Positions 1,920 to 60,600 of a DNA stretch of 64,000 nt are shown piece after piece; the stretch's first letter is position 1; each line of letters begins with the position of its first letter. A model generated the notes under the pieces. The model searched no databases. It was not told the origin of the DNA and saw nothing but the letters and a program-made list of their open reading frames with translations. This DNA is from Cruorifilaria tuberocauda (taxonomy: Eukaryota > Nematoda > Chromadorea > Rhabditida > Onchocercidae), in contig JABVXU010000269.1 in assembly GCA_013365365.1 (NCBI GenBank), positions 1-64,000 of the forward strand. The letters are read 5' to 3'. Position numbers and translations under genes: made by a program.

Positions 1920-4434
1920 ATGATTCTAATTAGCCTATTATTGCCTGTCAAAGTATTCTTTTTTACGTAAGTTCATTTTATTTTAATTTAATTTAAATAA
2001 ATATGAATGGTAAAAAGGTTTTTTTTTTTTCCAATATTATGATAAAATTTAACACCTATAAATATTTTATAATTTTTGATTCAAAGGATTAAATATGATT
2101 TAAAAATTAATTAAAATTAAAATGATTCGATCTACTCGATATCTACTGATAAATTTCAAGAGTACATAACTATATATAAATCATCAATGATTTTATTTTC
2201 ATTATTCAATTGCTAAATATATTTTAATATAACTGAATTTTTTCTCCAACTGATATCTGTTGACTTACTATTAATTATAAAACTGAAAACTTGTAATTAA
2301 AATTACAGTAATTTTACAGTAATAAAACAGTAATTTTTGACTAATAATTCAATCGATCAGGAATTAAAATTTTTCAAACATTTCTTTTAGCATTTTATTT
2401 CGAATAACGCCAGCTACTGTAATGAAATGCTTCAAACACTATCCAAATTATTATCTTGGTAGGAATGGAAATTTGGTTGTTATAAATATTTCCAGTATCA
2501 ACTCCTGTCTGGATCATTGTTTGAAGGTTATCTTGAAGCAAACTTTTGAAATTAATTCTTATTAAAATAACTAATCATCAAACACATCTATCTCATGTGA
2601 ACTACCAAAATTACTTACTTTATTAAATTGATAATTACAAAATATTATTTTAATTTTACATTTAATGATATTTTTGAAAAATTTTATTCGTTTAGTTCAT
2701 TTTGATAGATGACAATGTAATTATATCATATCACTTTACTTTTTAAATAAAAATCATTTTTTATTTAGTCACAGTTGCTTTATGAATTCATTTGTCGATC
2801 AGCAATGGTAAATAAAGTTCAGAGAGAATGTGTACTAAGTAAATGGAGTCCAGATTTGGTTATATCAAGCAGATATTATCCAAAAATTATATATACGGAT
2901 TTCTATTACAATATCTGTTTACCTCCTCGAAATCAGGTCACTAAAAAATCATAAAATAAACCGTTTCAAGTTTCGAAATAATTAAATTATAAATTTAATT
3001 TTAAAATTTCTGATTTTTTCAATAAGCTATAAATTATACTTTTAGATTCGACATTTTACAATTGCTCCACCTCGAACAACATTCTCAGTACCGCTTTTAA
3101 ATAGAAGATTATTCCTACAAAATTCTTCTACTAGTCCTGTCGTCAAAAATTACACATTAATCGCTAATATATCCGATAGTACTTCGAATGATGAAAGTAA
3201 GAAAAAACCATCGCTTGAAATGGCACAAAGTGCTCCATCATCAAGTACAGTCAGCCAAATCAGGTTTGATTTCAGGTTATAAAAGTATTTCAGATTTTTA
3301 CATCAATTAAGACTAATGTATTGCTATTTTTATCTAACAAACTAATCATCCCTCTTACAAAAAATCAATTAAAACTTTAGTATCCTAAAATACTTTTCGA
3401 CAAATTGCAATATTGCATTATTATTTATATAAAATTATAACTTTAATAATATTATTAGAGAAAAGAAATTAAATAAATTATTTTCAAAGTATGATTATAT
3501 ATAAATAGAATCCAATGTATTGTAGAAATGGTAGAATTTAATGAACAATATTTAAAATCAAATGATCTATGTAATAATTAATTTTCGCTTAAAATAAATT
3601 GCACTTGATGCTCTGTATAATTTAAATTAATTCTTAGGTTTGTGATGCTAAATCGAACTACTTTATCACCAAATCAATCAACCTTATATTATACTGATTA
3701 TGTTGAAAATCAACACAATAATAATAATGGCAGTAATAAAGACTGTAATAACGATAATAATAATAATAATAATAATAATAACAGTGATACCAACCATAAC
3801 GATGATAGTAGAAATGATGATGATGATTATGATGATAATGCTGATAATAATGGTGATGATGATAACGACGATAATGATGATAGTGGTGACATTTATAATG
3901 ATAATATTTACAAGGATAGTGATAGAAGTTTAATGTTATCAAGTGATGAACAGCCTATTTCCATTAGCAAAAATATTGCTCCCCATATTGCTGGCAGTTT
4001 ATTAGCACCGGTAAGGACGGCGAAAAGTGCCGCTATTAGACCGGATCCGGTAACCGAACATCGTAGTTTTCAATATACAGAAGCATCGAATCCTAAAATT
4101 ACTTCTATCATTTCATCTTCCTCAGAAATTGCTACTACTCCTTCTATAAGTGATAATAACACTACTGCTACTGCTAGTGATATTACTATGAAAACTGCCA
4201 ATACAATAACTGATATTATTACCACTATAAAAAATGCCAATACAATAACTGATATTATTACCACTATAAAAAATGCCAATACAATAACTGATATTATTAC
4301 CACTATGAAAACTACTACTACAACAATTGCAGCTATCACCGCTACTGTTATCACCAATTTTCCTGCTACTATTACCACCGCTACTACTACTACTGCTACT
4401 ACTACTACTACTACTACTACTGCTACTACTACTG

Positions 4435-4516
<82 letters not shown>

Positions 4517-4685
4517 ATTTACTACTACTACTGCTCTTACTGCTCTGTTAATTGTTAGTATTGGTTTGTTATGTAGCGCTTTCATTAAGTGCCTTAACAT
4601 TATTATTTTTGTCAGCATAATTTCTATTTTTCGTTTTTTTTCTTTCTTCATCTTTTTATCAGCTGGGTTTTCTCCAATTGTTTAG
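1920..4685 (+). CDS. Secreted/surface PAN-domain protein with Asn/Asp/Thr-rich tail, five exons
   Basis: Exons 1920-1966, 2391-2526, 2775-2936, 3046-3263 and 3638-4685 join in frame to 536 residues. The ATG was chosen because it opens a hydrophobic signal peptide (MILISLLLPV...) that ends at a perfect GTAAGT donor of the right phase. Residues ~25-115 form a PAN/apple-like domain with six cysteines in the family pattern (KCFKHYP, CLDHCL, FICRSA, ECVLS, NICLPP). PAN domains bind protein or carbohydrate and occur in nematode extracellular-matrix and cuticle proteins. After a Ser/Pro linker come poly-Asn, Asp-rich and poly-Thr stretches, three copies of a 13-residue unit, and a hydrophobic C-terminus that could anchor the protein in a membrane. 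The Thr run suggests a mucin-like O-glycosylated stalk. I recognise no specific orthologue. The far C-terminus is less sure, because splicing within the last exon (for example at the GTAAGG near 4011) would change it. Confidence 0.7.
4197..4313 (+). repeat. Three tandem 39 bp units coding a 13-residue repeat
   Basis: Units at 4197-4235, 4236-4274 and 4275-4313 each encode A-N-T-I-T-D-I-I-T-T-(I/M)-K-(N/T). The first two are nearly identical; the third differs at its 3' end. A partial copy precedes them. Because the period is a multiple of three, copy-number changes keep the reading frame of the PAN-domain gene. Confidence 0.9.
4379..4541 (+). repeat. (ACT)n microsatellite encoding poly-Thr
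   Basis: ACT repeats with occasional GCT, including an almost unbroken run of about 28 units (about 4430-4515). In frame it codes for poly-threonine with scattered alanines. On the complementary strand it reads as poly-valine, which is an artefact of the repeat. Its length is likely to vary between individuals. Confidence 0.9.
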
Positions 4686-24600: not shown

Positions 24601-27600
24601 AGTTATTTAAAATTTTGAAACTTTTTCAAATCATAGTTTTAAGTTTTTGTAGAACACAATTTCATTTCCTATTATTTGTCATATTCTAAAATAACTATGA
24701 AATTATATTAGGTAATTTGGATGATCAACGGTGTACCATTATCCGAATCGGATAAGATCAAATTTATCAGTGAAGATGGAATTTGTATCCTAACAATTAC
24801 CGATGTTTCTAGACATTTTGATGGCACTGTCACGTGTCAAGTAAGCTATCACTGATAAAAATTTTCCGTGTTTAAGTAAAAGTGACGTCGTGAACTTTTT
24901 TGAATTCGGGATTGATTCACTGACAAAGAATTTGTTTGAGTTAAGTGAATACAGTCAGTTGTGTGAGAATTGAACTCTCTGCTGATCGTAGAGGTCAACG
25001 TCAATGATAGTAAAAGCAATTAGCTAAGAAAGGTTATCTTGTCTCAGAACTTACCTAACTTAAGAAGGGTAATCTTATCGTTTCTGAGAGGATACCACTC
25101 TTCTCCAATCATAAAAAGATGGAGTAGAAAGAAAGTTTTAGAAACGGTAAACCGATATAGCATAAAGATTAAAGGTCACTGGATATATGAATTGATTGAA
25201 GAATTGAAATGAGAATTGTGTAAATAGTAAATCCCGTTAAATCCGTTAAAGATGATGATAATGAAATTAAGCTTCAGTCATCCCTTGAAGATGATAATGA
25301 GATAAACAGGTGAAGTGAGGATGAACTGAAATAGAACAAAGCGTAGGATATGCTTCATACATCTGCACGGATTTAACATTTCCTTCTATGTGATTTCAGT
25401 TTTTCCTGACAAATGATACTAAATTACAAGAAATTGAAAAATACGTAGAAGTGAAAAATGAAAGATTGGGGAAAATTTTTGAATTTTGATAAATATTACG
25501 TAATTACGTAAGTAAGAATACGTATGAATTACGTAAGAATTGCAAGTTAGAATCTCACAAAAATTTGTTCAGGGAATTAATCGACTTGGCGTACAAAATT
25601 GTGATGCGCAATTGAAAGTGCGAGTACCGCCAGCTGCGCCACATTTTGAACGTCCGCTTGAGGATAAAATCACGAAGGAGGGTCAAAAAATTATCCTAGA
25701 AACGGAAATTAGCGGTTTTCCGGATCCAAATGTATCATTTATGATTAAAGGAAAACCGGTTAGTTATTTTCTTTTCATACAATTTCCTATCAGATCGGTT
25801 AGGAATGGAATTTGCTATCAGTTTAGATAGTATAAATATGTTTTTATTTTAAATTTTTGCAAGATTCTGATTATTGATTAGAATGATCAAGTCATACTGA
25901 AAATATTGATTTTTCTACAGATTGTATCCGGTGAAAATGGTATTGAAATAATTGATAGAGGCAATGGATGCTATCGAATTGAAATTTCAAAAGCTGATAT
26001 TGAATTGCATGATGGTGAAATTGTTTGTACTGCAATCAATGATCATGGACAAGCGGAAAGTAGAGGACATATTATTGTGGAATCTGCTGATAAAGATTCA
26101 CTCTCTGCTCCTGCTTTTATCAAGGATATTGAAGATCAGGTGATACAATTAGTTCTAATTTAATATATAAATTATTTTTTTGGGTAAATTAAAAACAGCA
26201 AAAGTTAAAAAATTTGGTTGTGAGGTTTTTTTTTAATTTAAAAATATTTTCAAAATGTTTATTTACAGACAGTTAAACAAGGCGAAATGGCCGTTTTCGA
26301 AACATCCGTTCGTGGAAGTCCAAATCCAGAAGTTTCATGGTTTATCAATGGTCAAAAGATTGATAAGACAACACCTGGAATACAGATTGAAACACTCTCA
26401 GTTACTGATCACAAGCTTATCGTTGATTCAGCACAGCATGCTGGAACTATTTTATGCAGGTTATTTTCATCTTTTTTAAATTTAAACTATAAATATCATT
26501 TAATTAACTAATTAATTAATTAATTACAGAATGCAGTAAATGATATTTGAAGTTTTCCAATTAAACAAAGAGTATTAGGCAATGTGATAAGTCAAATTGA
26601 AAAAGCTTTCGATAAGGATGCAGTAATGAAATTAAAGCAAAACTCTATAGAGAGGATAGATCCGGTATCTAAAGTATTAATTGGACTCTTAGTATTGGCG
26701 GATTACCAAAAGAACGTAGAATTGAGATATTCGGTCCCGCGAGTTCCAGTAAAACAACTCTTACTTTCTATTTATAATTACAGAAAAGTTAAATTTCAGA
26801 GCAGAAAATTCCATTGGTCGTTATGAAACAAAAGCAAAACTGACTGTAATTTCTGGTGAAAAGAAAAAACGTCCGCCGGAATTTATTGAAAAATTATCGG
26901 ATATAAATACTATTGAGGGATCGAATGTGGTTTTTGAGGTTCAGATTGAAGCTGAACCGATGGCTTCTTTGAAATGGTTCCTGAATGGAAAAGAGTTAAC
27001 CGAATCAGATGTATGGTTTTTTTTATTAATTAGCTTATCATTTTTATTTTTACAAAATAAATAGGTTAACAAATTTGATAAATAATATTTACGGTTATTT
27101 TCAAAGTAAAACCATAATTTTTTAGCATATCAAAATTCGTGAATTTGACGGTAGCTGGAAAATGGAAATCAATAAAGTAGCAATTGAAGAAAGTGGTACC
27201 ATTCGTTGTGTAGCACAGAATTCCGAAGGTAGCGCGGAATCATCGGCATATTTGACGGTTAACAAGAAACCGTTTGCACCACAATTCGAAGAACGTCCAA
27301 AAAATGTTACCGTTGAACAGGGACAAGATGCTCAATTCCAAGCTCATGCAATTGCAATACCTGAACCTAGCTATCAATGGTTTATTGGTGGTCGAAAAAT
27401 TACAGAAAATACGGCTGGTACCAAAGTTGAAACTATTAATGGTGTTTCAACACTTACACTTGATACTAAAATTTTCGATTCTTCTACCGTTTCTGTGACA
27501 GCTACAAATTCCATAGGTATTTTATTTTTCTTACAAAAACAAATTTCTTTCCTTACACTTTAAATTTTCCGAAGAATTTAATTATTTCATAATCATTATA

Positions 27601-33600: not shown

Positions 33601-36600
33601 TGATCCGAAACCAAATCTCACATGGTATATTAACAATGAAGTGATGAAAAGTAACGATGAAATTACGATTATTACGGATGATAATACATCAACGCTAGTG
33701 ATCAAGAATTTCAATCCGGATAAGCATACCGGTGAAATCATTTGTAAAGCTGAAAATGATGCTGGTGAAGTATCCTGTACAGCTAGCATGGGAGTGAGTG
33801 ATTCTGAAATTTTCAATTAGTAAAATTTCAATTTGAATAATTTTTATAAATCCAATGTATTCAGTAACTTGATTTTTTTGAATTTTAATATCTAGAAAAT
33901 ATCGAAAAATGATATTTACTTTGCTGAACGCTCTAATGAAGCATACATATTTCAGCCTTACACCTCAGATATGTTCTCGGAATCACAAACGGAATCTGAA
34001 GCACTGGCTGAAGAGGCGATTAACATTGAAGAAGGTACAGAACTTGGTAAGTCAACTCAAATTTCCATAGTTTTTAATATTATTAAAAATTTCTGGTAAA
34101 CTTGAATTTTTGTATCATTTTTTACTTATTTCATTCAAGAAGCATTTTGATTCAGGTACGGAAGTAGATTCCATCGAAGAATTCCAACGTACGCCAACAC
34201 CAATTATGGCACCGAAATTTATTACTAAACTTAAAGATACTCGAGCAGCACGTGGACATCGAGCGATCTTCGAATGCGTCGTTCCGGATAGCAAAGGCGT
34301 TTGTTGCAAATGGTAAGCGATCAAGTTAATCTTAACCTGAAATGTATTCCGATCTTTGAATTAAATTTACGTCAAAGATTTGTATGAAATGAAGTTTTGC
34401 AGTATATTCAGCTTTTTCTTTTTAAAATTTTTCAATCAATTTATTATTTTTAAGGTTAAAAGATGGACGCGAGATAGAATTAATTGCAAGAATTCGCGTG
34501 CAAACTCGAACCATAGAAGGTCACGTAACCAGTGAACTAATCATTGATGATGTTTTACCGGAAGATGCCGGAAAATATACCGTTGTGGTGGAAAATATTG
34601 CTGGCAAGGATTCTTGCGAAGCAACTTTAAATGTAATCGGTAAGCAATTTTTGAAGTAATATAAACTATGCGCTTACAGCATTTTTAAATTCATGATTTA
34701 AATTTTGAAAATTTAAGCGATTTCTTTTTTTTTAGGGATTGGTTTATAACTTTTGTTTTATTGAAAGTAATGGAAAAATTAATTGAAAATTTCATGAGGA
34801 ATAGTTTCTCTTCTTTTCCAGAAGCGCTAATGAAACCGGAAACATATGCACCGGAATTTGTTGTTGCTCTACAAGATAAAACATGCAATGAAGCAGAAAA
34901 AGTTGTCTTCGAATGTAAAGTAACCGGTGAACCGCAACCAACGGTTGCTTGGTTCCATGAAAAGGTTCTTTTTTTTAAAAAAATGATTGATTTATTTAGT
35001 GATGAGCAGAATCAGCATGAAATGATGATCAAAATTGAAATAAGAATTTTCCAGACTGCGATAGCTGAAGAAGCAAGTAAAACGATCATTGAATCAGAAG
35101 GTGCCATTCAACGATTGGTTATCGTTTCTACCGATGTTACCAGTCGTGGACAGTACATATGCTTAGCTGAAAATGCTGAAGGCAAAGCAGAATCCAAGGC
35201 AACTCTTACTGTACTGGGTAAGTTCATGAAATTTGAATAGTGATAATGGCAGTGATAAAGGTTGCACACCTATGACCTTTTTGCCTCTTTATCAAATCAA
35301 ATACTATCCCTCTGCATTACTTTCTTATTCTCTCAATTTCTTTCATAGAGATTGCCTTATTAGTAATATAATATAGCATAGAATCATTGAAATTGAATCT
35401 AGAAATGATAATATAATTTAGGTAGTATAAATTAAGGTTTCTTGCAGGATTATTTCACAATTCACTTTCATTTCCCTTCGCTTATCATTAGCAATTACTA
35501 CCTGTCCACCTGTTTCTTAATTTGTTTTCAGCTGAAGCGCCACAATTTATTCGTCAAATCACTTCTAAAGAAGTAAGCATAGGTGAGAAAGTAATTTTGG
35601 ATTGTTCTGTTAAAGGTTCACCACATCCAACGGTACAATTCTTTCGGGAATCCACCCGAATTACTTCAGATTCTCATCATTCTATTGAGCATGATATTTC
35701 TAATGTACATTGGCAATTAGTAATTGATAAAACGGAAGAAGCTGATTTTCGGAAGTATCGCGCTGTTGCTATGAATTCTGTAGGGATGATAGAATCGGAG
35801 GCAGAAATTAAACGGAAGGAAATGAATCGAAAACCGGAATTCATTGAAGTGTTGAAGAATCGAAAGGTTACTGAGGGTGATGAAATCGTCATGGAGGTGA
35901 AATTTTCCGGTATTCCACCACCAGATGTTAAATGGTTCAGAGATAATAAGGAAACAGTGGAAGAGGAAGAAAGAATTACAATAAAAACCGAAGAAGGACA
36001 TTCTACCTTAATTATTAAAAATGCGAAACTGGAAGAAGCCGGAAGCTATCGAGTTGAAGTGACTAATTCGGAGGGTGAAGAAACGTCAAGTGCCAACGTT
36101 ACCGTGGAATCAGGTGCTATACCACCGAAATTTACAGAAATGTTAACCGATTTAGAAGTTCATGAAGAAGAAAGTACCGAAATGAAAGTAACTGTAACTG
36201 GAGTTCCTACACCCGAGATACAATGGTTCAAAGACGGCGAACCGGTACAAATCAACACCGAACGAATATTTGTCAAAGAAACTGAAAACAGTCAACATAT
36301 TTTAACTATAAATCAAGTCCAATTGGAAGATGCTGGTTTCTATTCATGTAAGGCATCGAATAAGGCAGGTACTGAAGAATGTAAAGCAAAATTTGTGGTA
36401 CTTGAACTTCTACGGGCACCGAAGTTTACCCAAGAATTATCCGAAATTAAGATAAAAGAAATGGAAACTGCTGAGATTGCAGTAACAGTAACTGGGAAGC
36501 CGACACCAGAAGTTTGCTGGACCAAAGATGGTGCACCTATAAATATCGATAATGTCCATTTTGCAACCAGACAAGATGAAAGTGACCACTACACCTTAGT

Positions 36601-39600
36601 TATCAAACAAGCTAAATTAGAAGATGGTGGTGTTTACTCTTGTAAAGCATACAACAAAATTGGTGAAGCAGAAACCAAAACTTTATTTGCAGTGGAACAA
36701 GAAAATGAATTGCCACAGTTCTCAGAAGGCTTGAAGGAATTTTCGGTTCAGGAAGGTGAAACTGCAGAAATGTCAGTAACAGCAATTGGTAAACCAACAC
36801 CTGAAATAACATGGTATAGAGATGGTATTCCGATAAATATTGATCAGAAGCAGATTCTGGTAAAGTTAGATGATGCTGGACATTCTACACTGATTATCAA
36901 GGAAGCTCGTTTAAATGATACCGGTATTTATTCATGTAAAGCTGCCAATATAGCTGGAAGTGCTCAAACTGAAGCTAAATTTGCAGTTGAAGAAACAATT
37001 GAACTACCAGAATTCATTAATGGTCTACAAGAGATTTCGGTACAGGAGAATGAAACAGCGCAACTTTCAGTTACAGTAGTTGGAAAACCGAGACCTGAAG
37101 TAGTATGGTTGAAAGATGGTGTACCAGTCAACATTGATAATGAGCATATTTTATCAAAGAAAGATGAACAAGGTCATCATACACTGATAGTTAAAGAAGC
37201 TCGATTAAAAGATACGGGTAATTACTCTTGTAAAGCGGTGAATTTAGCTGGTACCACGGAAACGGAAGCAAAATTAGCTGTTATTTCGGAATTGATGCCA
37301 CCATTATTTATCGATGAAATTGGTGAATTCGAAATAGAAGAAGGTGAAAAAGCAGAACTTCAATGCACCGTTATTGGTAATCCGAAACCTGAGGTAACAT
37401 GGATGAGGAATGGTGTTGTGATAAACATCGATAATACTAATTTCTTCAAAAAAGATGATGAAAATGGAAAGCAAACATTAGTAATCGCTAATGTAAATAA
37501 GGAAGATTGTGGTATTTATACATGTATTGCTACCAATTCAATTGGTACCGCTGAAATTGCTGGAAGAATTAAATTTCCCAAATATAGTTGTGAGAAGATG
37601 CTAACGGAAGAAGTTAAACCAATATTTATTGAACCGCTGGAAACACATACCGTTAAAGAAGGTGAAACAGTCAGTATTAAATGTCGAGTAAATGAAAATG
37701 CAAAAGCTGATATTCATTGGTATTTAGGTGATAAGCTAATTGAACCAAATGAACATTTGATCGTGGAAAAACTTGATAATGGTATCATGAGGCTAACAAT
37801 TGAAAATGCTACCAAAGAAGATATTGGTATGTATCGATGTGAAGCAATCAATAAATCCGGAAAAGCAACAACTGCAGCAAAACTGAATTTTGCAACGGAA
37901 GAAACGGAAGAAGTGATCGATGAATCAGCGGCTTTAATCGGATTTATTCAACCATTAAATGATGTTATCGCATTTAATAATTCAGAAACCGAATTGCTCT
38001 GTGCATTGAATGCTACCACTGATGTGCAGATAAAATGGTTTAAGGATGGTTTAGAATTGATAAGTCCGGAAGAACATATCACGATTGAGCAAGCTATTGA
38101 TGGTACTCAGAAACTGAAAATTGCTAAAGTAACCGTAGAAGATGCTGGAACTTATCGTTGTACCGCATCCATTTCCGATTCATCTGTGTGGACCGAAGGA
38201 AAACTGACTGTTTTAGGTTATCACGAAAAATCATCTATCATGAAATCTTTTATGTACTGTTTTCATGGCTAATTGATAATTAAAAAAGGTTTTTTAGTTT
38301 AAAATATATCTAGTATTTCATTTTCGATTTGAAAAATTTATGGAAAAAATAAATTGAAACAGTACTTTGAAGATTTCCTGTAGCAATGAGATTCAAGCAT
38401 GATTCTTTTCTTATTCTAAAAACTTAATAATAATTAAATGCTACGCCTAATAATAATTAGAAGCTTAATAATGATTAAATATTGCATGCGCCTATCGATT
38501 TCCCTGTACATTTAAGATTTCAAACTTCAAAAATTTATTATATCAATTAAATTTTAAGATGATAAATTAAGTTAGAATTCTTTCTTTTTGTTTTAAGATA
38601 CATTACTCGCATTTCATTTCATTTCATGAATTTTGCTTTCGCGCTAACTTTGAACTGTTTGCTTTCTGAAGTTTTGCTTTATTCTGTTTTAAAAACGCAA
38701 TATACTTTATTAATTTGCTTCATTTTCAGTTACAATTCAATTTCTATCTAAAATTTAATTTTAGAAAAACCGAAAGAAATAAAAGAAGATGAAGGACCAC
38801 CAAAGTTCACGGAACTTTTGAAATCTTGTACGGTATTTGAAAATGGTGAAATTATCCTTCAATGCAAGCTGAAAGGCCTACCAAGACCGGCGATATCTTG
38901 GATGAAAGATGGCGTTAAGGTACTTTTTTTCTGTTAATTACTCTAAAATAAATATAAAGTAAGTTAGGTTTGTTTTTATGCCTTAAAATACATTGAAAAT
39001 GTCATATGATTACATGGTATGAACTTAATTTAATTTAAGGTTAATGTTTTAGAGATATCAGAAATGAAATTGTTTGTTGAAAAATCGAATCGAAATAAAT
39101 AATTTTCGAATTATCGGCTATGCGAAATTATATCCTTAAATTTCAAACCATTTTTTTTCAGCTTGATCAAAATGATCGCGTAGTCACCGAGTATCATGAC
39201 GATGGTACCATTCTGTTGAAAATTAAAAGTGCTAGAAAAGAAGATATCGGTGAATATCGATGTAATGCGATTAATAAATATGGTGCTGCTTGGACTGCTG
39301 GACCCGTTCAGGTTGCAACCGAATCGGAAATGCGGAAGGAAGGCGAAGCGCCTGATTTTATCGAACCGGTCAAACCTGTTACTGTAAGCATAATATTTTT
39401 AAATGAATGAATGTATTAGTAAGGATGAAGAGTAAAATTTTGGCAAAATAAAAACGAAAAAGTAAAACTAAAAATTTTCAATCAAAAGGTTAAATTGAAA
39501 TAAAGTTTCCTTTTGTCGTATCAAAAGGACAGTTGAAAGATATTTATTAAATGTAAAATCTAAAATTATCTGATAGTTATTTGTTTATTCAGGTTTATGT

Positions 39601-42600
39601 TGGTGAAGTAGCAGTATTAGAGGGTAAGGTCAAAGGACAGCCAAAACCAGAAGTCAAATGGTTCAATGGTGAAAATATGGTGAAGGAAAATGCAAACATT
39701 CATCTCGAAAATCTTCCCGATGGTACTCAAAGACTTACTGTAAAAAAGGCAACTCTCGAAGATGCCGGAGAATATCGTTGTTTTGCAACCAATCAATACG
39801 GTGATGTATGGAGTGATGTTACATTAAACGTTCAAGGTTTCCCATTACTCTCATATCTCGCGGGATTGCAGGAAATCTATTGAAATTTGAATTTTCAAGT
39901 CTTTTATTTTAAAAGTGCTATTTAGTTATAAGTAATGGTATTTTTAAAGTTATTACTAAAATTAATTTTAGTTCCCGTATCTGAAGAAGAAGGCGCAATT
40001 GAACACGCAGCGCCAACATTCTTGAAAACTCTGGAAAGAATCCGCGCTAAAGAATCAGAACACGTTGTATTTGAATGCAAAATTGTTGGTGAACCAATGC
40101 CTGAAATTAAATGGTTCAAGGTAGGAATTAATTAATTTAGCAAGTTTCCTGATAATTAAATAAACTTTAACCTTAGCTCTGTTAATTCTTTACTTTGAAT
40201 TATGTCTTTAACTTTTCAAGAATACTTTAATGTACCATTTGCGTTTGATATCAATATTATTGTCACATTTTTAGGATAAAGAAGAAATCAACGCAAATGA
40301 TGTCCATTTCAAAAAAGAAACACTTCCAGATGGTACCACTCGGTTGATTATTGATTCAGTTAAGAAGGTACCACATATTATTGTGTAATTTAGATAAAAT
40401 TGATTAATTTTTTGTTAATTTTAATCTTTCAATCATGAATTTTCTTACAGGCTGATGCTGGTGAATTCAGATGTGAAGCACGGAATGCCTTCGGTACAGC
40501 ACGTACCGATGCAGCGTTGAATGTGCTTTATGATTTTGAAGTACCGGTAGAAAGTGAAATTTCACCAGAATTTGCACAAGAATTAAAAGCAGTGCAGGCT
40601 ACCGAAGGGGAAAAAATTTCTTTCGAATGCCGGTAAGTGACGTGAAATTTGCACTTGTGGAATTTTAGCAAGAAAATTAGAAATTTAGAAAAAAATTAAA
40701 TTGAAGAGTAATAAATGATTGACTGGATTGATTTATAAGTACTATTGATTCATTAACCTTATAGAATATTGTTTTTAGGGTAGTTGGTGTTCCTGTACCA
40801 CAGGTAAAATGGTTCAAAGATGGTAATGAAATAAAACCTGATGAAAATGTTCGTATAGAAAGTTTACCAGATGGTACGAATCGTTTAGTAATTGATTCAG
40901 TTACTGTTGAAGATCAAGGTAATTATCGATGTGAAGCAACGAACAATGCTGGATCGATTAGTTCAAAAGCTCCTTTAACTGTAAATGGTAAAAGCATTTT
41001 CAGTAAATTCTAATTAAAAAATTTTTTTGTTTCAATTTTTGAAATCTTTGTATGGAGATAGCCTTATAATTTAGAATCGAGATATTTTTATATTTATTAT
41101 CAGGATTAAAATCAAAATTTCATTGTGCAAATAATCTTACAAAGCAGTGAAATGTGCAAAAAAAAATGATTGAAATTATTTTTTTTAATTGAAATATTAT
41201 AGAACTGGAAACTCTAAAGCTGAAGAAAGAATTGAAAGATACGCAAGTGAAAAGTGGAGCTAAAATTCGATTGTTTGTTGAAGTTTTAGGAAAACCAAAA
41301 ATAGTAAAATGGTATCATGGAAAGGATGAAGTGAAAGCGAGCAAGTATGGATGAATTTTTGATATAAATTGAGAATCTCTTAATAAAATTAAAAGGATTT
41401 AAAGAATTGAAACATTTTGAAATCGAATTGGGTTGATATTATATTGAAATTTTGATGGGAATAAACTATTGAATGAAATGATCAAATTGATTTCAGCCGG
41501 ATTAAATTGGAAAAAATTACGGAACATGAATACAGCTTAGAAATTGATGAGGCAGAAGGTTCAGATGAAGGAACCTATTGTGTAGTCTTATCAACTGGTA
41601 CCGCGGCTGTTCAATCATCTTGTTCAGTAACTGTATTGAAAAGTGAAGTAGCACCAACTTTCCTGAAAGGTCTTCAAGATCAGAGCGTACGAAAAGGATC
41701 CAAACTTATTCTTGATGTAAGCAATTTCCTTCTTTTTTTTAAAATATCGCATGAAATACAAAAATAAGATATTTTGAGATAAATAAACTTTCATTACTGT
41801 GATAATAATAATTTAAATTAAATTTAATTCTAAGCGATATTAGATTAAAACGTTCTTTATATTTTTAGATTGAACTGGACGGTACACCAAAAGAAATCAA
41901 ATGGTTTAAAGACGGTGTACCAATTGATGATAAACTGGTGAAAGAACTTGGAAATGGAAAATATCAATTAGCGATCGATGAAATCAAGGAAAATGATACG
42001 GGTGAATATATGGTGCAAATATCTAGCAATATTGGAACAATGCAATCCAAAGCAAATATTTCACTTAAAGCAGGTACCGTAATTATATCTCGATATAGAA
42101 TTGTAATCTTACTGTATGCAATATACAATACTGTATGTATAAAAGTAAAATTTTAGATAAGCCAGAAATTCTCACTGGCTTAAAGCCAACAACAGTTGAA
42201 ATTGGCGAAAAAGTAACATTTGAAGTGGAAACTAAAGGACCGATCAAAGAGGTTAAATGGTTAGTAATTGGGAATGAATTTGAAAATACCTTTTAAAAAT
42301 CCCAAATGAAATAGAAGACAGAATTCTTTTTTTTAATTAAAAACAGAATTTAGAAGAATTATAAATTTGTGAATTAAATTTTATTAAATTGAATTGGATT
42401 AAATTGAAAGTGAATTAAATTAAACTTTATCTTTCTGAGTGTTAGGTACAAGAATGGTGTGGAAGCTAAAAATTTTGAGACGAAGCAAATTGGAAATAAT
42501 AAGTATCAGTTAATTATCGATAAAGCAACCAAAGATGACGCAGCTGATTATAAGGTTAAAACTTTAAATTAAGCAATCGATTTTTCTTATTTTGGAAGTA

Positions 42601-45600
42601 ATCGCAGAGAAAGTAAATACCGTAAATATCAGGGGAACTTTTAATACATTTTCCTAATTCAAACTTTCTAGAAAATAACAGTTTTGATTAATTTCATGAC
42701 AAAATGAAGATAATTTCCCTTCTCTAATTTAACTTTAATTTTTTAATTATTTAAAATAACTCTTGATTTATTCAGGTTTCAATAATAATATAATAAAATT
42801 TGCTATGGAAAATGATCATTGATATATTGATCAAATTGGTCAATAAATCAATTAATTTTAATTTCAGGTTGTCTTATCAAATGATGACGGTGATGCAGAG
42901 TCATCGGCTAAACTAACCGTGAAACTACCAAAAATTAAATTTACCAAGAGTTTGGAGGATCAAACGCTTGATGCTGGTAGCAAAGCTGTTCTAACTGTTG
43001 AAGTTAATTTGCCTCTCAAACAAGTTAAATGGTAAATAATGACCTTTCGATATAAATTAACGGTAATTGCTGAGTAAAGCAAAATTGAAACATGATTCAT
43101 AGGAAATGTTTTAAGGTATAAATTTCGAGTTTTCAGGTATAAGAATGGCAAAGAGATCATAGCAAGTGATAAAGTTAAGCCAAATAAACTCAATGATAAC
43201 ACATATCAGTTGATAATACCGGATGCAGAGGAAGATGATACTGCTGAATATAAGGTACGCATACATATAAGTTCTTCATTTTAATTTTTAAATTAGTGGA
43301 AATATTTGTTTCGGTCACTATTTTAATGAAATTTAGCACTTTTTTTATTGATTAGGATAAAGTAACATATCAAATGCAACCCTTTGTTTATCATTTTTAT
43401 CATATCAGTTTGTTAATTTCAGGTTGTTGTTACCACGGATGATGATGATACGGCTGATTCTTCATGTGCATTAACTGTAAAATTGCCAGCAGAGAAGCCT
43501 ACAATAAAGAAAGGAATTGAGGATCAGTTTATTGCAGTTGAAGAACCTTTAGAAATTGCAATTGAGGTGATTTTGGATTTTGAAAACTTTCAAATTAAAA
43601 CTTGAGAAAGCTTTTCTGGTGAAGTTTTCTTTTTTGATTTAATGGTTTAGAAGTAAATTAACTTTCTTGAAATTAACTAATTTTATAGACAACTGGTAAG
43701 CCAAAGGTCGTAAGATGGTACAAAAATGGGCAGTTATTATCGGCCGAAACAAACAAAATGATTAAGCAAGAAAAGATTGATGAGAACAATTATATTTTAA
43801 AAATTGATAAATGTTCCTTAAATGACAGTGGTACTTATTCGGTTGAGGTACAAAATGAAGCAGGTGAAGCTAAGAGCTCAGGAGAGGTAATATTATACTT
43901 TATCATTGTCTATTTTAATATTATCATTTAAATTATCAGCTCTTAACAGCTTCATAATTAGTATTATCACTTTATAACATTTACGTCATTTGTAAATGCA
44001 TGATGTTTGATATTATCTGTATTGTTCCAGACTTATTACTATGAAAATTTAATTGATTACTTTAATTTCAAATGTTAATTAAGAGCTTTTCAGATAACTG
44101 TTGAAGATAAGATAAGCTTCTTGGTACCATTAAAAGATATTGAAGTGGTAGAAGCTGAACAAGCAGTATTTATGGTTGAAACAAATATTCATCCACGAAT
44201 TATCAAATGGTATAAAAATGGGCAAGAAATTAAACCAATAAGTGGTCGAATTGAGATGAAAGATAATACGACAAGATTTCAATTGGTCATTAAGAAAGCT
44301 GAAATTGATGATGCAGCTGATTATAAGGTATCATTTTATCAGCATCCTAAGGTGTAAGGTATCATTTTTCATTTATCATTCATTCGAATAATAATTTACC
44401 TTAGCAATACGTATTTGTATATTCTCTTTTATTATTAATCAATCACTTTTAATACTTTTTTGTCACGTAAAAACTGACGTAAAATTTTACTTATCATTCG
44501 TAAAAACTTTTCTGAGAAAAAATCATTTCCAACTGAAATAATATAATTAAAAGTAGCAGATTTTATTGATAGCATTTTGCAATCTTTATTCATTTAATAA
44601 GAATCTTAATTTTAGGTTGTCTTATCAAATAGTGCCGGTGATGTCAATTCATTTGCGAAATTGACAGTTAAAAAATCAAAGGGTGAACCGAAAATTGTGA
44701 AAGGTTTAGAGGATCAGGTAAACTTTTATTTCTCTTTTTCTAAATTCCATACTAAAGTTTATCATACTGAGTTAAACCTGATTCGATGAAAATCAGGAAA
44801 GATCAAATAAGCAAGAAAGATCAAATAAGTAATAATTATGGTAAAATTAGAAAAGAAAGACTTAATGAAATTTTTAAAGCATAAACTGAAACAATGGAAA
44901 AATGTATGAGAACTAATCATTTAGACAAACTATCCAACGTTATCACTGATTTATTTCATGAAGATAATTCGAATTTTCAATATTTCAGTATTCAATTATC
45001 GAATTTAAATAGTGAGTTATACGTCTTTTATTAGGTTGTTGCGAAAGGTGATGAATTAATGTTGGAAATCAAGGTGGACGAGGAACCAATCGAAGTTCGA
45101 TGGCTTAAAAATGACGTTGCATTACCAAAAGATGCTGAAGCTAAAATTGAAAAAATTGATGAAAAAACGTGAGCAATTTCGTTTAAAGTTCACTGATTCA
45201 ACAGGATTTATTCTATTTTTTTATTTTGATATTATCTCAATTTCAACTATTTTCAATTAAAACTTTCTAATTTCCTTCTTTGCCTTATCTATTAAGGACT
45301 GCTAAATTCTAACTAATTTTAATAAATTTGAAATTGCCATCTGTTCGTCTGATTGTTATTTCTTTGCTTTCAAAAACATTGGGTCAATAGGAGCGAAATT
45401 AAAAGATCTGGCTTTTTAGGTATCGTCTAACAATTCCAAAAATTGATACTACGGATGCCGGCGTATACAGTGTTGAAGTAATTAACGAAGTTGGCAAAGT
45501 ACACAGTACTGGTAACGTAGAGGTTGACGTAAAACCTGAAATCACTAAAGGCCTAGAGGATTGTAAAATCAATGAAGGCGATGAGCAGCTATTTAAGGTT

Positions 45601-54600: not shown

Positions 54601-57600
54601 TTTGGAAATTCCGTAACATGGAAGTTGATACGGGACCTACATCTAAGTGAAATATTGTCTTACTCATTTAAATTCATTTAATTAAACAATTCATTTTAGT
54701 TAGCATTTTTTGCTTGATGATTTGTTTATTTCCCTTCCGCTTTGTTTACTTGTTTATCTATTACAGCATTCGTGTACTGGTGCATACTGGTATGGAAACA
54801 ACACTTACAATAAGTAGATTTAGTAAGGAAAATGTTGGACAGTATCAGTGTATTGCGATAAATCAGTATGGTGAAGCTCAGCAAAATATCTCAGTTGATC
54901 TTGGCGGTATGCTTTCGAGATTTTTTTTAATTTTCAGGAACCTTTTTGGTTATACATGTTTCAAAAACTAGAAGGGCTTTGATTTAGTATATGATATTTA
55001 CAAGGCGATAGAAACGTTACTTCAATATTTTGAGTTGAAATAAGTTAAGAAATAAAATGGTAACTCAAGTTCAAAGAATTTTTGTCTTTGGAAGAGATAA
55101 AACTTCATTTACTTTATCACTGATGGTTTTTCGAAAGTATGGGAAGGTCGAGGCAAAGATACTGTCCATTCTAAAGTATCATATCAACAAAGATTATCAC
55201 TTTTATCACTTATAAAGTGATAAATGATCACACTTGAATTTGTTAAAAGTATTGCTTCTGATAATAATCTTTCTGAGAATTTAGATGGTTTAAGATTTTT
55301 TTTTTAATTTCTTATTTTTATATAGAAAATTTTAAATTATCAATCTATTGATAACATTTACGATTTTGCAGCTCGACCGAGGTTTACTCAACCTTTGATT
55401 AATAAAGTAGTACCAAGTGGTAAACCACTTAGGTTAGATGTACGTGTTGAAGGAAGTCCATCTCCAGAGCTCAAATGGATGAAGGTAAGATTAATGCTTA
55501 CTCCTAATTAAAGTTGAAATTTCTTTAAATATCCACACCCTTGCTTTATCCCTAGCATTTAGGATTTTATCACTCTTTCTTTCATAAACATTGTTAAAAT
55601 GCTTGTCTTTCTTTTTATCACTGATGATATTAGCATGTTTTCATTTATTTGATGCATGATTTTGAAATTACTTAAATTATTTACTTTTCAGGATTGGAGA
55701 CCAATTGTGGAATCATCCCATGTAAGTATTGTACGTGAAGGTACTTTATGTTCGTTGATTATCAATGATCCGTTTTGGTGCGACTGTGGAATTTATTCCG
55801 TCGCAGCTATAAACGACGCTGGTACGACAACAACGTCATGCTCAGTAACCATTGAAGGTTCAATTATTATTATCATTGTAATATTGCTAATAATCAACTT
55901 ATATAGACAATTTCATACTGCTGTTAATGTATGAATTAAAGTAAATGTAAGTATTCACTTCTAAATGATCATTTGAAGATGATCGGAAAAGTAAGGTTGT
56001 TGCAGAATTGCTAAATTATATATAAGAATAGAGAGTAAGGCTGATAATCTGAAAATTATGTTGATAGAATAATGAAAAATGCATGGCAAATTAAATTTAC
56101 TTTATTGAAATTTAAAACCTTGTGGATAGATTTAAAACAATGTAAGACTAGTTAAACTAATAATAAGTAAAAATGTATAAGTAATTGCTTTCATAATTAC
56201 CATACTGTTTTTTATATTAAAGTAATAAGCAATAGAATTTTCTATTGATTCCAAAAGATTACTAATTGTGTTAACTTTTTATTGAAATGATATTACTAGA
56301 ATGAAATCAAAATTTCTGTTTGGTTTTTAATTACTCATTTCTTAGTGTATCACATGGATTTACGGTATTATTGCGTCATAGTTTCTAATGATTTTAAAAT
56401 CTTGCAACAGCCTTGCTAAACTTTCTCATTGATAATTTACTAATCGTGATTCTTACTTATTAACTGTTGATTATTTCATTAAATTAATCATCATCTTATT
56501 TGTTAATTTTAGAAAAGGTAGGATAGTATAATTAATAAAATGAATATCATATCATACCATTTCAATTCTTTAAAATTTTTGCTGAAATTTAACTCCCAAT
56601 ATATTTTTTAAAATTTTAGATGATGAAGATTTTGGTATGATGCATGGTATTCGAATGAAAAAATCACGTACAGCGTTAGAAGCTCGAAAAGTTCGAGAAA
56701 TTTATGAAATCGATGAAAACGACGAAAAGTACGAATACTCCGTTTCAAATTGAAGCACACACACACACACACTCTCTCTCTCTCTTTTCAGAATCTTCTA
56801 AAAAATGAATGGATACATCCATTTTCACGTCAAACGAAGTAATGATTGACGTGAGGTCAATCTTAGCGTTTCCTTCTGATAATGCAAGGAATAATTTTTT
56901 GTTTTATAATATCAATTTCGAATCGTTTCAAATTGTTAACTTATCATACAGATATTCTGGCTAGCTGCACTAGTCCATATGATTAATGTAATTTTTTTTT
57001 TCATTCTGTGATAACGAATTTATTGAATTAATTAATTAATTGACCGATTTTCAATCGATATGCACTATTGCATGTGTGGCTTTGTTTCAGCAAAGAAGAT
57101 GGAAATTTCACTTTCACTTTGTTTTGCTAATTTTATAAATTTTAAAATTGAAAATTTACGAATCATTAAAATTCTCAAGCCTTTTTCTTTAATTGAAATT
57201 ACGTCACAATTCTTCCTTCATATTCCGTTGCAATGTATTTCGAAAGAAGGCTGGAAGTAAATTTGAAAAAATAAAAAGTAATTTTCATTTCCTGCAATAT
57301 TTTATTTTCATTGACAAAATGAAAGAGTGTTGAGTGTTATAAATAGCCATAGCAAAAATGGATGTTGTTATAGCTTTCTGATTCCTTTAATTCCGTTTTT
57401 TCTTTTCCGTCCTGTTTTTCCGGTTGCCGAGTTTCAGCCAATCAAGAATTTTTAGCTTTTTAGCTAGAATTTGGCTCTTTCGCTCTTTGAAGCCTTGGAT
57501 CGGTGACATACTTCAGCGATGCTCCATGCCTTTTTCACATATTGGAATTTGGATTTTCTCGTATTTTTCATTTTGATAACACAAATTTTGTGCACTGATT

Positions 57601-60600
57601 GTCTAACTTTAAGGCTGGAAAAGCACAAGAAACTTTCAAAATTCAATAAAACTGAAATAATTGAAATGATACAATCTTATCAATTTTTTCTTGGCTTTAA
57701 AAAGATGAATTCATGAATTCAAAGTTTCTTGTGCTTGCAACAAATACAGAAAGCTAAACAAGGCCTCAACACATCAAAACACTTTCATTTGTCAGTAAAG
57801 TAGAATGATGCAGGGAAATGGAAATTTTTGATAATGAAAATTACATCAAATAGTGAGCCAAATTTGGATTTAAATTGTTAGTTTTTAAAAAATTGAAAAT
57901 TTCAAAATTACTTTTGAAATTTCAAAGTTTAAATTGCATACAGTTTACTGGCTTTATTTCTATAATTTCACAAAAGAAAAAAGATAAGCAATATATAGGA
58001 AATTTCTCGGCAACAAAAGAGAGAGAAAGAGAGTTGCAGCAATTTTTACGTGAAAATTTACACGTAACGAGATTTAGTTTGGTCATGTCACGTTATCTTG
58101 TAACTTACATTGACCTAAATTAAGACATTACTCAAGTTAGAGTTAAAATTAGAGGTCTTGTTTATTGTTTTCTGTATTTGCAGAGCTGCAGCCGCCGGAG
58201 CACCATTCCATGTTACCGAAATTGCTACCCAAAAACGTTTCCTAGCCCAATTACGTGCATTGGATGAAAGTTTAGCTCGTAATATTGAAATGCAAAATAA
58301 TTTGGATCATCCGGGTATCATACAACTTCACCAAGCTATCATGGATCAGGGAATTGCCGTTCTTATCTACGAAAAGTATGATTTTAAATGGCACAATGAA
58401 ATTAACAATGGAAAAATTCCGATACAATTATAAATTTAAAATTTCACGTGAAAAAAAAATCGAATGACAAAATGATACCAGCAATTAATTAATTAGTTAG
58501 CTTGACTTTATTTCAATCATTTATTTAATTTTAAAAAAAAAATTTATTTTCAAAAAAAAGGTTTTTACATTTTAGATGAATTTTTTTTTTGTAAACTTTA
58601 AAATGCTTGAAACTATATCGTGATAATTAAATAATGATAATTAAATCTACCATGATTTTTTTCTTGAAAATTAACAAAATCTTAAAATTCGAATTTTCTT
58701 GTTCAAGGTATTTCATCTCATAGTTCCTTATTCCTTTTAATTAAACAAAATTTCAAATATGGCTTCTGAAAATTTGAAAAACAAATTTCTATTAAATTAA
58801 AAAATTTTGAAAGCTTTTAATTTGAAAGTTTTTGAAGTTTCAATTTCGTAAATTCATATTCGAATTATCTTAATATAATACTTAACATAATACTTAATAT
58901 AATATAATAGAAAATTGATAGTGATTAGAAGTATGGGATAAAAATGATGGAAATCAATTTCAAAATGATAAGAGGAAGGCTGTGAAAAAAAAGTTAAGTA
59001 AAGTAAAAGAAAACAATTTAATTTTATTTTAATTTATCGAAGTAAATTGAAGCATTTCAAGCAGATCTCACCAAATACTTTATAATTTACTTACTCTCAT
59101 AGCCTTACTTGAGAGGTAAGCAAAATCAAAACATTAATTAATCTTCAGTACAGTTTATTTCAAAAAAAATTCTCTTGTTGGAGAAGATTTCATGACGTGA
59201 TTATCAACGTGATTACCATTACGTAGTTATCATCCGTTACGTGATTATGATTATTTGATTATCATTATACGCCAAGTACGTCCGTTACGTCAATAATATC
59301 CTTCATCGATCTTTACGATATATGAACAATAGCTTTACATAATTCTATACGCGAAGACAGAGAGAAAGAGAGAGAGCGGAGGAGAGAGAGAGAGAAAGAG
59401 AAGGAAAGGAAATGTATGCTACAGTGATTAAATGGTCTGAAAGAATTTGTTGTATGTATTCTCACCCTGACATGTCTACGACCATACCACGTTGAAAGCA
59501 CGACATCTCGTCCGATCTGTCAAGTTAAGCAACGTTGGGCCTGGTTAGTACTTGGATCGGAGACGGCCTGGGAATCCCAGGTGTTGTAGACATCGCTTTT
59601 CGTTTTCTACCACTACTTGTAACAAAAATCGATTAATCGTTCGATTTTGAACACAGTCTAATCATATCAGTACGAATGAGTGGAAAAGTCGATTTTAATT
59701 AATCAGACAGAAAACAGTTTTACGTATTAAAAAATAATCGATTAATTAATTCCAGCAAACTGATTGGCAGTGAAAAAAGATTTATTCATAAATAGTACAA
59801 CAAAAAACAAATTGAGTTGTCAAAAGCACTTGAAGAAGAAGAAAGTATGCAACAGCACCTCGAGGGGTTTTTTAGCAAAGTCAAAAACTTATTGGATGAT
59901 GCTAAAAATAATCTTAGGCCTCTTTAATTACTAAAATACTTGGCACGTTACTGTACAAATATTTCCGCGTGAGATTAACTCTATCTGATTTTAGGTTCTT
60001 TTGCAGAAGGACTACGTGATAAGACTAGTCAATAATAGTTTGCTACTTAGATAATATGCAGGTATGTAAAATGATATCTATATTGATTTTTAAATTGAGC
60101 AATGAAATAGGTGATGGAAGAGGAAAGAGAACTGATAATGGATTGATACATTAATATACCTGAACAAGCTTCATCATCCATTATTCATAAAAAATAATTT
60201 ATACAATTGTTGAGGATTTAAATAATTAGAGGTTAGTGAAAATTACTGATACATTTATAGCTGTAAGTAATAAATTAAAAAATAAAAAAGGAAGAAGTTT
60301 AATCAAGAATTTGAATTTACAGTTTTAATCAGATTCATTCAATCGAGAAGAATAAGATTTAGGATGCTATGTAAATAAGTAAGCAATAAATTTAAGTATT
60401 CATTTATTTTACAGAAGTTAGTAATAATTAACTGGATGGTAGAGTATGTGAATATTTCAAAAAGTTATTTGAAATAAAATAATAGCAACGAAGTTTATGG
60501 ATATTTTATATTAAAGTAAAAAGATAGTGTTTAAGTATTCGATGTTTGTAAAATTTGATATAATATAAAAACACGAAAGAACAGGTGGTTATTTGTACCA

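What the first reader, a model, noticed from the sequence alone, without database searches (positions are those of the whole stretch)
26563..26765. Bacterial recA fragment lodged in an intron of a muscle gene
About 68 codons of the RecA N-terminal core, including the Walker A region, lie in unc-89 intron 21, with a frameshift and altered Walker A residues. Nematodes lack RecA, so the DNA came from bacteria; Wolbachia is the obvious donor for a filarial host. The fragment records an endosymbiont-to-nucleus transfer and, by its decay, a rough age. It sits next to TAAT repeats, which may mark the insertion point.
Basis: partly seen in the sequence, partly recalled or inferred. Interest (0 to 1): 0.75.

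Follow-up and report, generated by a model that had tools for sequence, protein, structure and literature searches.

The report
Wolbachia recA relic in worm intron
A roughly 206-base broken piece of the recA gene of a Wolbachia symbiont lies inside an intron of a muscle gene of its filarial worm host, where it has decayed, apparently without function; such relics are common in filarial genomes, so this is a sound but ordinary example.

Summary
Window 26562-26767 is a decayed copy of the start of recA (172 of 206 aligned bases match the resident symbiont's recA, plus a 10-base deletion) inside intron 26460-26799 of an unc-89-like gene. The same assembly holds a Wolbachia contig with intact recA whose protein is 100% identical to that of the Wolbachia endosymbiont of Cruorifilaria tuberocauda, so the host is most likely that filaria. 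Trees make the fragment sister to the resident recA (UFBoot 97-100), with nearly all change on the nuclear branch and spread over all codon positions. It is a nuclear Wolbachia transfer (NUWT); a chimera is very unlikely. Three more probable NUWT pieces lie in the window. A 2025 survey (PMC12693587) already screened this species for NUWTs; whether it lists this copy is unknown. The local oddity is a junction with an 11-bp direct repeat and an inverted copy of host intron DNA, suggestive of break repair. A supergroup C donor is not formally excluded (AU p 0.185). Ordinary; low interest.

The parts
26562..26767 (+). recA-derived relic, 206 nt, matching positions 33-248 of the resident recA coding sequence, with a 10-nt deletion and altered Walker A residues
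26460..26799 (+). intron of the unc-89-like host gene that holds the relic
   Evidence: exon joining restores the I-set domain
26521..26531 (+). left copy of an 11-bp perfect direct repeat, possible target-site duplication
   Evidence: simulated chance 0.012-0.021 and 17 of 3000 same-spaced AT-rich pairs of the window
26775..26785 (+). right copy of the 11-bp direct repeat
26484..26502 (+). left arm of an imperfect hairpin in host intron DNA
26537..26555 (+). right arm (17 of 19 complementary), between the left direct repeat and the recA homology; possible snap-back filler from repair, or part of an older hairpin
26500..26526 (+). TAAT repeat tract, mostly in the loop of the hairpin

Best explanation
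A nuclear Wolbachia transfer (NUWT). A short piece of recA from the Wolbachia lineage now resident in this filaria (wCtub, supergroup J) was captured in the worm germ line, most likely while a double-strand break in an AT-rich intron of the unc-89-like gene was repaired by end joining. It was tolerated because it is spliced out, and it has since decayed without selection. Shown: Wolbachia recA origin, position in an intron, pseudogene decay, resident recA as closest relative among the sequences compared. Inferred: germ-line break repair, harmlessness through splicing, a single event, the name of the host.
For: Resident recA is the best match and sister in the trees: bipartition UFBoot 100 (full recA, 40 rows), 99 (206-nt region, 40 rows), 97 (three recA pseudogenes added). 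The nuclear branch is 0.27-0.37 against 0.000-0.008 for the resident. The 34 mismatches fall 8/12/14 on codon positions 1/2/3, while L096 against the resident shows 4/2/22; in 25 of 34 the majority of 33 other sequences agrees with the resident. A 10-kb resident stretch also matches five other places of the assembly, and the window has three more probable pieces.
Against: Only 206 nt are informative, and a place with the wOo and wDimm pseudogenes is not rejected (AU p 0.185; 0.156 in a wider grouping). In 6 of 34 differences the majority of other sequences agrees with the relic, so part of the change may lie on the resident branch. No reads across the junctions and no orthologous introns were available. 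The homology does not extend detectably to the direct repeats, so the insert's exact ends are unknown. The break-repair step rests on junction features of modest significance that other NUWT flanks do not share.
Confidence: 0.86

Rival explanations
1. The transfer came from a different, earlier Wolbachia (supergroup C or C-like) that once infected this lineage, not from the ancestor of the resident strain.
For: The tree grouping the relic with wOo and wDimm recA pseudogenes is not rejected (AU p 0.185). PMC12693587 reports supergroup C NUWTs in all filariae studied except the Brugia and Wuchereria clade (Results section).
Against: Best trees and UFBoot 97-100 favour the resident. Identity is 172/206 with the resident against 150/203 (wDimm) and 147/205 (wOo), and one site is shared by relic and resident alone.
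Confidence: 0.1
2. Assembly chimera: a piece of symbiont recA wrongly joined into a nematode contig.
For: The assembly does include a large Wolbachia contig (C355, 308,861 bp).
Against: The piece differs from the resident recA at 34 of 206 sites plus a 10-nt deletion, in a pseudogene pattern, and the host exons on both sides join in frame.
Confidence: 0.02
3. The fragment has been put to use, for example as part of the intron's splicing or regulatory signals.
For: The acceptor lies 32 nt downstream of the relic, and the right copy of the direct repeat contains an acceptor-like TTACAG.
Against: Substitutions are spread over all codon positions; the acceptor at 26798-26799 lies outside the detectable recA homology. 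No conservation or expression data were available either way.
Confidence: 0.02

Closest known systems
NUWTs (nuclear Wolbachia transfers) of filarial nematodes, surveyed in 22 species in PMC12693587
   Same: Short, decayed Wolbachia gene piece in a filarial nuclear genome, assigned by phylogeny; the survey's table includes Cruorifilaria tuberocauda, GCA_013365365.1
   Different: Nothing in kind. This copy lies in an unc-89-like intron with a hairpin and a direct repeat at its edge. Whether the survey lists this copy is unknown, since its supplements could not be read here
Wolbachia-like fragments of Acanthocheilonema viteae and Onchocerca flexuosa, PMC2882956 (passages seen)
   Same: Truncated, frameshifted Wolbachia homologues in filarial DNA; the paper also mentions sequence duplication and inverted repeats in its fragments
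   Different: Those hosts are Wolbachia-free; here a symbiont contig is present. That paper reads the repeats as consistent with transposon insertion sites, not break repair

Membership tests
NUWT | Homologous to a Wolbachia gene and nested in or sister to Wolbachia sequences in a tree | tested here: met
NUWT | Lies in the nematode nuclear genome, flanked by host sequence | tested here: met
   Ig-domain exons on both sides join in frame; contig C298 of 74,189 bp; unc-89 match for another exon
NUWT | Not an assembly artefact: reads span both junctions | not testable with these tools
   no reads available; 34 differences in 206 sites argue against a chimera
NUWT | Disabled and without coding constraint (usual, not required) | tested here: met
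   10-nt deletion and frameshift, Walker A changes, codon positions 8/12/14
NUWT of supergroup J origin | Closest to supergroup J recA, alternatives rejected | tested here: inconclusive
   sister to the resident at UFBoot 97-100, but grouping with supergroup C pseudogenes has AU p 0.185; the wDcau-sized genome G041 gave no recA match to compare with
Functional bacterial gene acquired by a nematode | Intact reading frame under constraint | tested here: not met
   frameshift and even codon-position spread

The most novel reading that the evidence does not exclude
The relic was seeded by a vanished Wolbachia infection that preceded the present one, and its junction records capture of symbiont DNA at an AT-rich hairpin, with snap-back synthesis and an 11-bp staggered-end duplication: a readable repair scar for how symbiont DNA enters a nematode genome.
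Probability: 0.06. Interest if true: 0.4.

Novelty: new member of a known kind. Interest (0 to 1): 0.17.

Why it matters
It adds one clean, positionally anchored NUWT to a known class. Because it lies in an intron of a conserved gene, its presence or absence can be checked in sister filariae and so bracket one transfer in time. It also preserves a piece of recA from a group in which relatives lack or have broken the gene: no recA match in G041 (wDcau by size) and only stop-ridden matches in G032 (wOo by size) and G040 (wDimm by size).

Tried and rejected
Idea that the relic keeps ancestral residues lost in the resident (Val15, Val19, Val32, Ser39): rejected, because 33, 33, 33 and 32 of 33 other sequences carry the resident base at the four changed sites, so these changes are nuclear.

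Extension of recA homology beyond 26562-26767: not supported (left P 0.886, right P 0.45).

A genome-wide hairpin element at the left junction: not found; apart from the window itself only one TAAT-rich place on C631 matched. That tool skips simple repeats and common words, so this does not show that the hairpin is unique. Hairpins as a general feature of NUWT edges: not supported; of 18 flanks of nine NUWT candidates only the recA left flank is extreme (P 0.0005), two others are at 0.0335.

tRNA or structured RNA as the cause of the other window matches to Wolbachia: no tRNA found; the only Rfam hit at gathering scores is a 5S rRNA at 59474-59592.

A literature search on integration mechanisms listed nothing that I followed up.

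A run with standard bootstraps timed out without output; its constraint tests were rerun in reduced number and the standard bootstrap was not repeated. The fragment was not scanned against PHROGs, NCBIfam or PADLOC, and no structure was predicted.

Full report
What is there. Window 26562-26767 (+) is homologous to the start of bacterial recA. The frame 26673-26777 hits Pfam RecA at 6.1e-8, while the frame 26551-26775 hits no Pfam family at 0.001. Solved RecA chains match both frames, but for the first frame only three sequences, all concatenated RecA repeats; for the second the best single RecA is 3.3e-6. The piece aligns to positions 33-248 of a 1,068-nt intact recA. In the MAFFT alignment 172 of 206 aligned bases are identical, with one 10-nt deletion that shifts the frame; BLAST, which places the gap a little differently, counts 32 mismatches instead of 34. 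Where the intact gene reads GPESSGKT the relic reads GPASSSKT. Homology beyond these coordinates is not supported statistically.

Where it lies. Joining the exon ends at 26459 and 26800 gives an uninterrupted frame whose I-set domain matches profile positions 11-90 of 90 at 2e-20, so the relic lies wholly inside intron 26460-26799. A 911-aa exon piece at 35537-38269 is 76% identical over 60% of its length to 'Muscle M-line assembly protein unc-89' of Onchocerca flexuosa and 74% to a Wuchereria bancrofti protein. That both exons belong to one gene is an assumption; I did not model the gene or count its introns.

Source. The same assembly (71.7 Mb, 1,108 contigs) has a second recA match on contig C355, 308,861 bp. 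Each of six stretches that I looked at along C355 carries long open frames; recognising them as rpsA, truA, dnaN, ftsK, ruvB, recF and the like is my own reading, only recA was tested (Pfam 1.8e-135). I take C355 as a symbiont contig; a very large intact nuclear insert is not formally excluded. Its RecA is 100% identical to nr 'recombinase RecA [Wolbachia endosymbiont of Cruorifilaria tuberocauda]'; the next of the 58 listed proteins is at 86%. The host is therefore most likely Cruorifilaria tuberocauda. This rests on RecA alone, and the published draft is larger (75.5 Mb in 1,888 contigs). PMC8116671 (abstract, passages and sections 8 and 18 seen) describes that draft and wCtub (863,988 bp, supergroup J).

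Phylogeny. In the family search 62 of 67 genomes had a match. Loci of 40 of these 62 were fetched. The trees use 36 of them plus two Ehrlichia loci, the resident and the relic: 40 rows. Left out of the first trees: L010 (same as L090), L127 (split recA) and L120-L122 (pseudogenes, added). The relic is sister to the resident with UFBoot 100 (full recA), 99 (206-nt region) and 97 (pseudogenes added). AU tests reject a place with L096 (p 0.031, though SH gives 0.20), a clade of the relic with the other Wolbachia-family rows that excludes the resident and the pseudogenes (p 0.0008), and a place with the G042 pseudogene (p 0.012). They do not reject a place with the wOo and wDimm pseudogenes (p 0.185; 0.156 with G042 also in the group). 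The names wOo, wDimm and wDcau for G032, G040 and G041 rest on contig lengths of 957,990, 920,122 and 863,427 bp equal to the genome sizes printed in PMC8116671.

Decay. The relic's branch is 0.27-0.37 substitutions per site against 0.000-0.008 for the resident. Differences fall 8/12/14 on codon positions 1/2/3, against 4/2/22 for L096 versus the resident, and 27 of 34 are transitions. In 25 of 34 the majority of 33 other sequences has the resident base, in 6 the relic's, in 3 neither; L011, L012, L090, L125 and L128 were left out of that count. The K2P distance to the resident is 0.19. This is what an unselected nuclear copy should look like. No calibrated rate for this worm is at hand, so I give no date.

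Junctions. An 11-bp perfect direct repeat (26521-26531, 26775-26785) brackets the relic. Simulation puts such a match at 0.012-0.021, and 17 of 3000 same-spaced AT-rich pairs of the window reach it. Thirty bases without detectable recA homology lie between the left copy and the relic, seven between the relic and the right copy. The thirty bases contain an inverted copy (17 of 19) of intron DNA at 26484-26502: P 0.002 by simulation, and 15 of 7,996 window 30-mers do as well. The strand folds as DNA with z -3.4. This may be repair filler, or an older hairpin at which the DNA broke; the data do not separate the two. No other copy of the hairpin was found in the genome beyond one TAAT-rich place on C631 (the search skips simple repeats), and other NUWT flanks do not share the feature.

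Context. A 10-kb resident stretch matches five other places in the assembly besides this one, with 40-232 aligned bases at 76-93%. I did not annotate their surroundings, and that answer did not list the query's own place on C355, so it is not a complete count. In the window, three 20-kb pieces were searched against five Wolbachia genomes (40001-44000 not searched). Besides recA the strongest matches are dnaJ-like (59802-59887, 86%), coxA-like (55106-55198, 79%) and, weaker, argB-like (44833-44970, 69%) DNA of G041, each found in four or five of the five genomes. Pfam gives DnaJ_C, COX1 and AA_kinase for the source frames; the name argB is mine. A host or mitochondrial origin of these three was not tested. 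Further matches at E 6e-8 to 8e-4 in these searches were not followed and may be chance in AT-rich DNA.

Literature. PMC12693587 (abstract, passages, Results whole, Methods section 11, first of two parts of the Discussion; [quoted passage not shown] Its main text has no word beginning with 'unc-89' or 'intron'; 'reca' occurs three times at word starts, and the passages that I saw show 'recapitulate', not the gene. Search listings with unc-89, Wolbachia, nuwt and Cruorifilaria (27 papers, 15 listed) and with intron, recA and related terms (14 papers, all listed) showed no title about this locus. Two listed papers hold both 'unc-89' and 'Wolbachia' (PMC6555960, PMC4642636) and were not opened. 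Supplements were not readable, so this copy may already be in print.

Verdict. A real, well-supported NUWT: a new example of a known kind with a mildly interesting junction. Interest is low.

Noticed in passing
window 59802-59887: Piece matching dnaJ C-terminal DNA of G041 (wDcau by size) at 86%; probable further NUWT, about 210 bp after a 5S rRNA gene.
   Followed up: partly
window 55106-55198: Piece matching the 3' end of a cytochrome oxidase subunit I gene of G041 at 79%, followed by the palindrome TTTATCACTT/AAGTGATAAA; probable NUWT, mitochondrial origin not tested.
   Followed up: partly
window 44833-44970: Weak, old-looking match (69%) to an amino acid kinase gene, argB-like, of G041; preceded by a short duplicated stretch.
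   Followed up: partly
window 59474-59592: 5S rRNA gene, + strand.
   Followed up: no
window 3621-4685: Long open frame of low-complexity Asn/Asp and Thr runs.
   Followed up: no
G000 contig C355 (L006-L008, L129-L133): A 308,861-bp contig that reads as Wolbachia sits in the nematode assembly, so symbiont contigs were apparently not all removed.
   Followed up: partly
G041, G032, G040 (L120, L121): recA is intact in the resident strain but gave no match in the wDcau-sized genome and only stop-ridden matches in the wOo- and wDimm-sized genomes; PMC8116671 also reports no rec genes in wDcau and wOo.
   Followed up: partly
G042 (L122): Another Wolbachia-family genome of about 1.0 Mb with a recA pseudogene that groups apart from those of wOo and wDimm.
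   Followed up: no
G000 C665, C776, C241, C113, C145 (L134-L138): Five further places matching a 10-kb resident Wolbachia stretch, 40-232 aligned bases at 76-93%; surroundings not annotated.
   Followed up: partly
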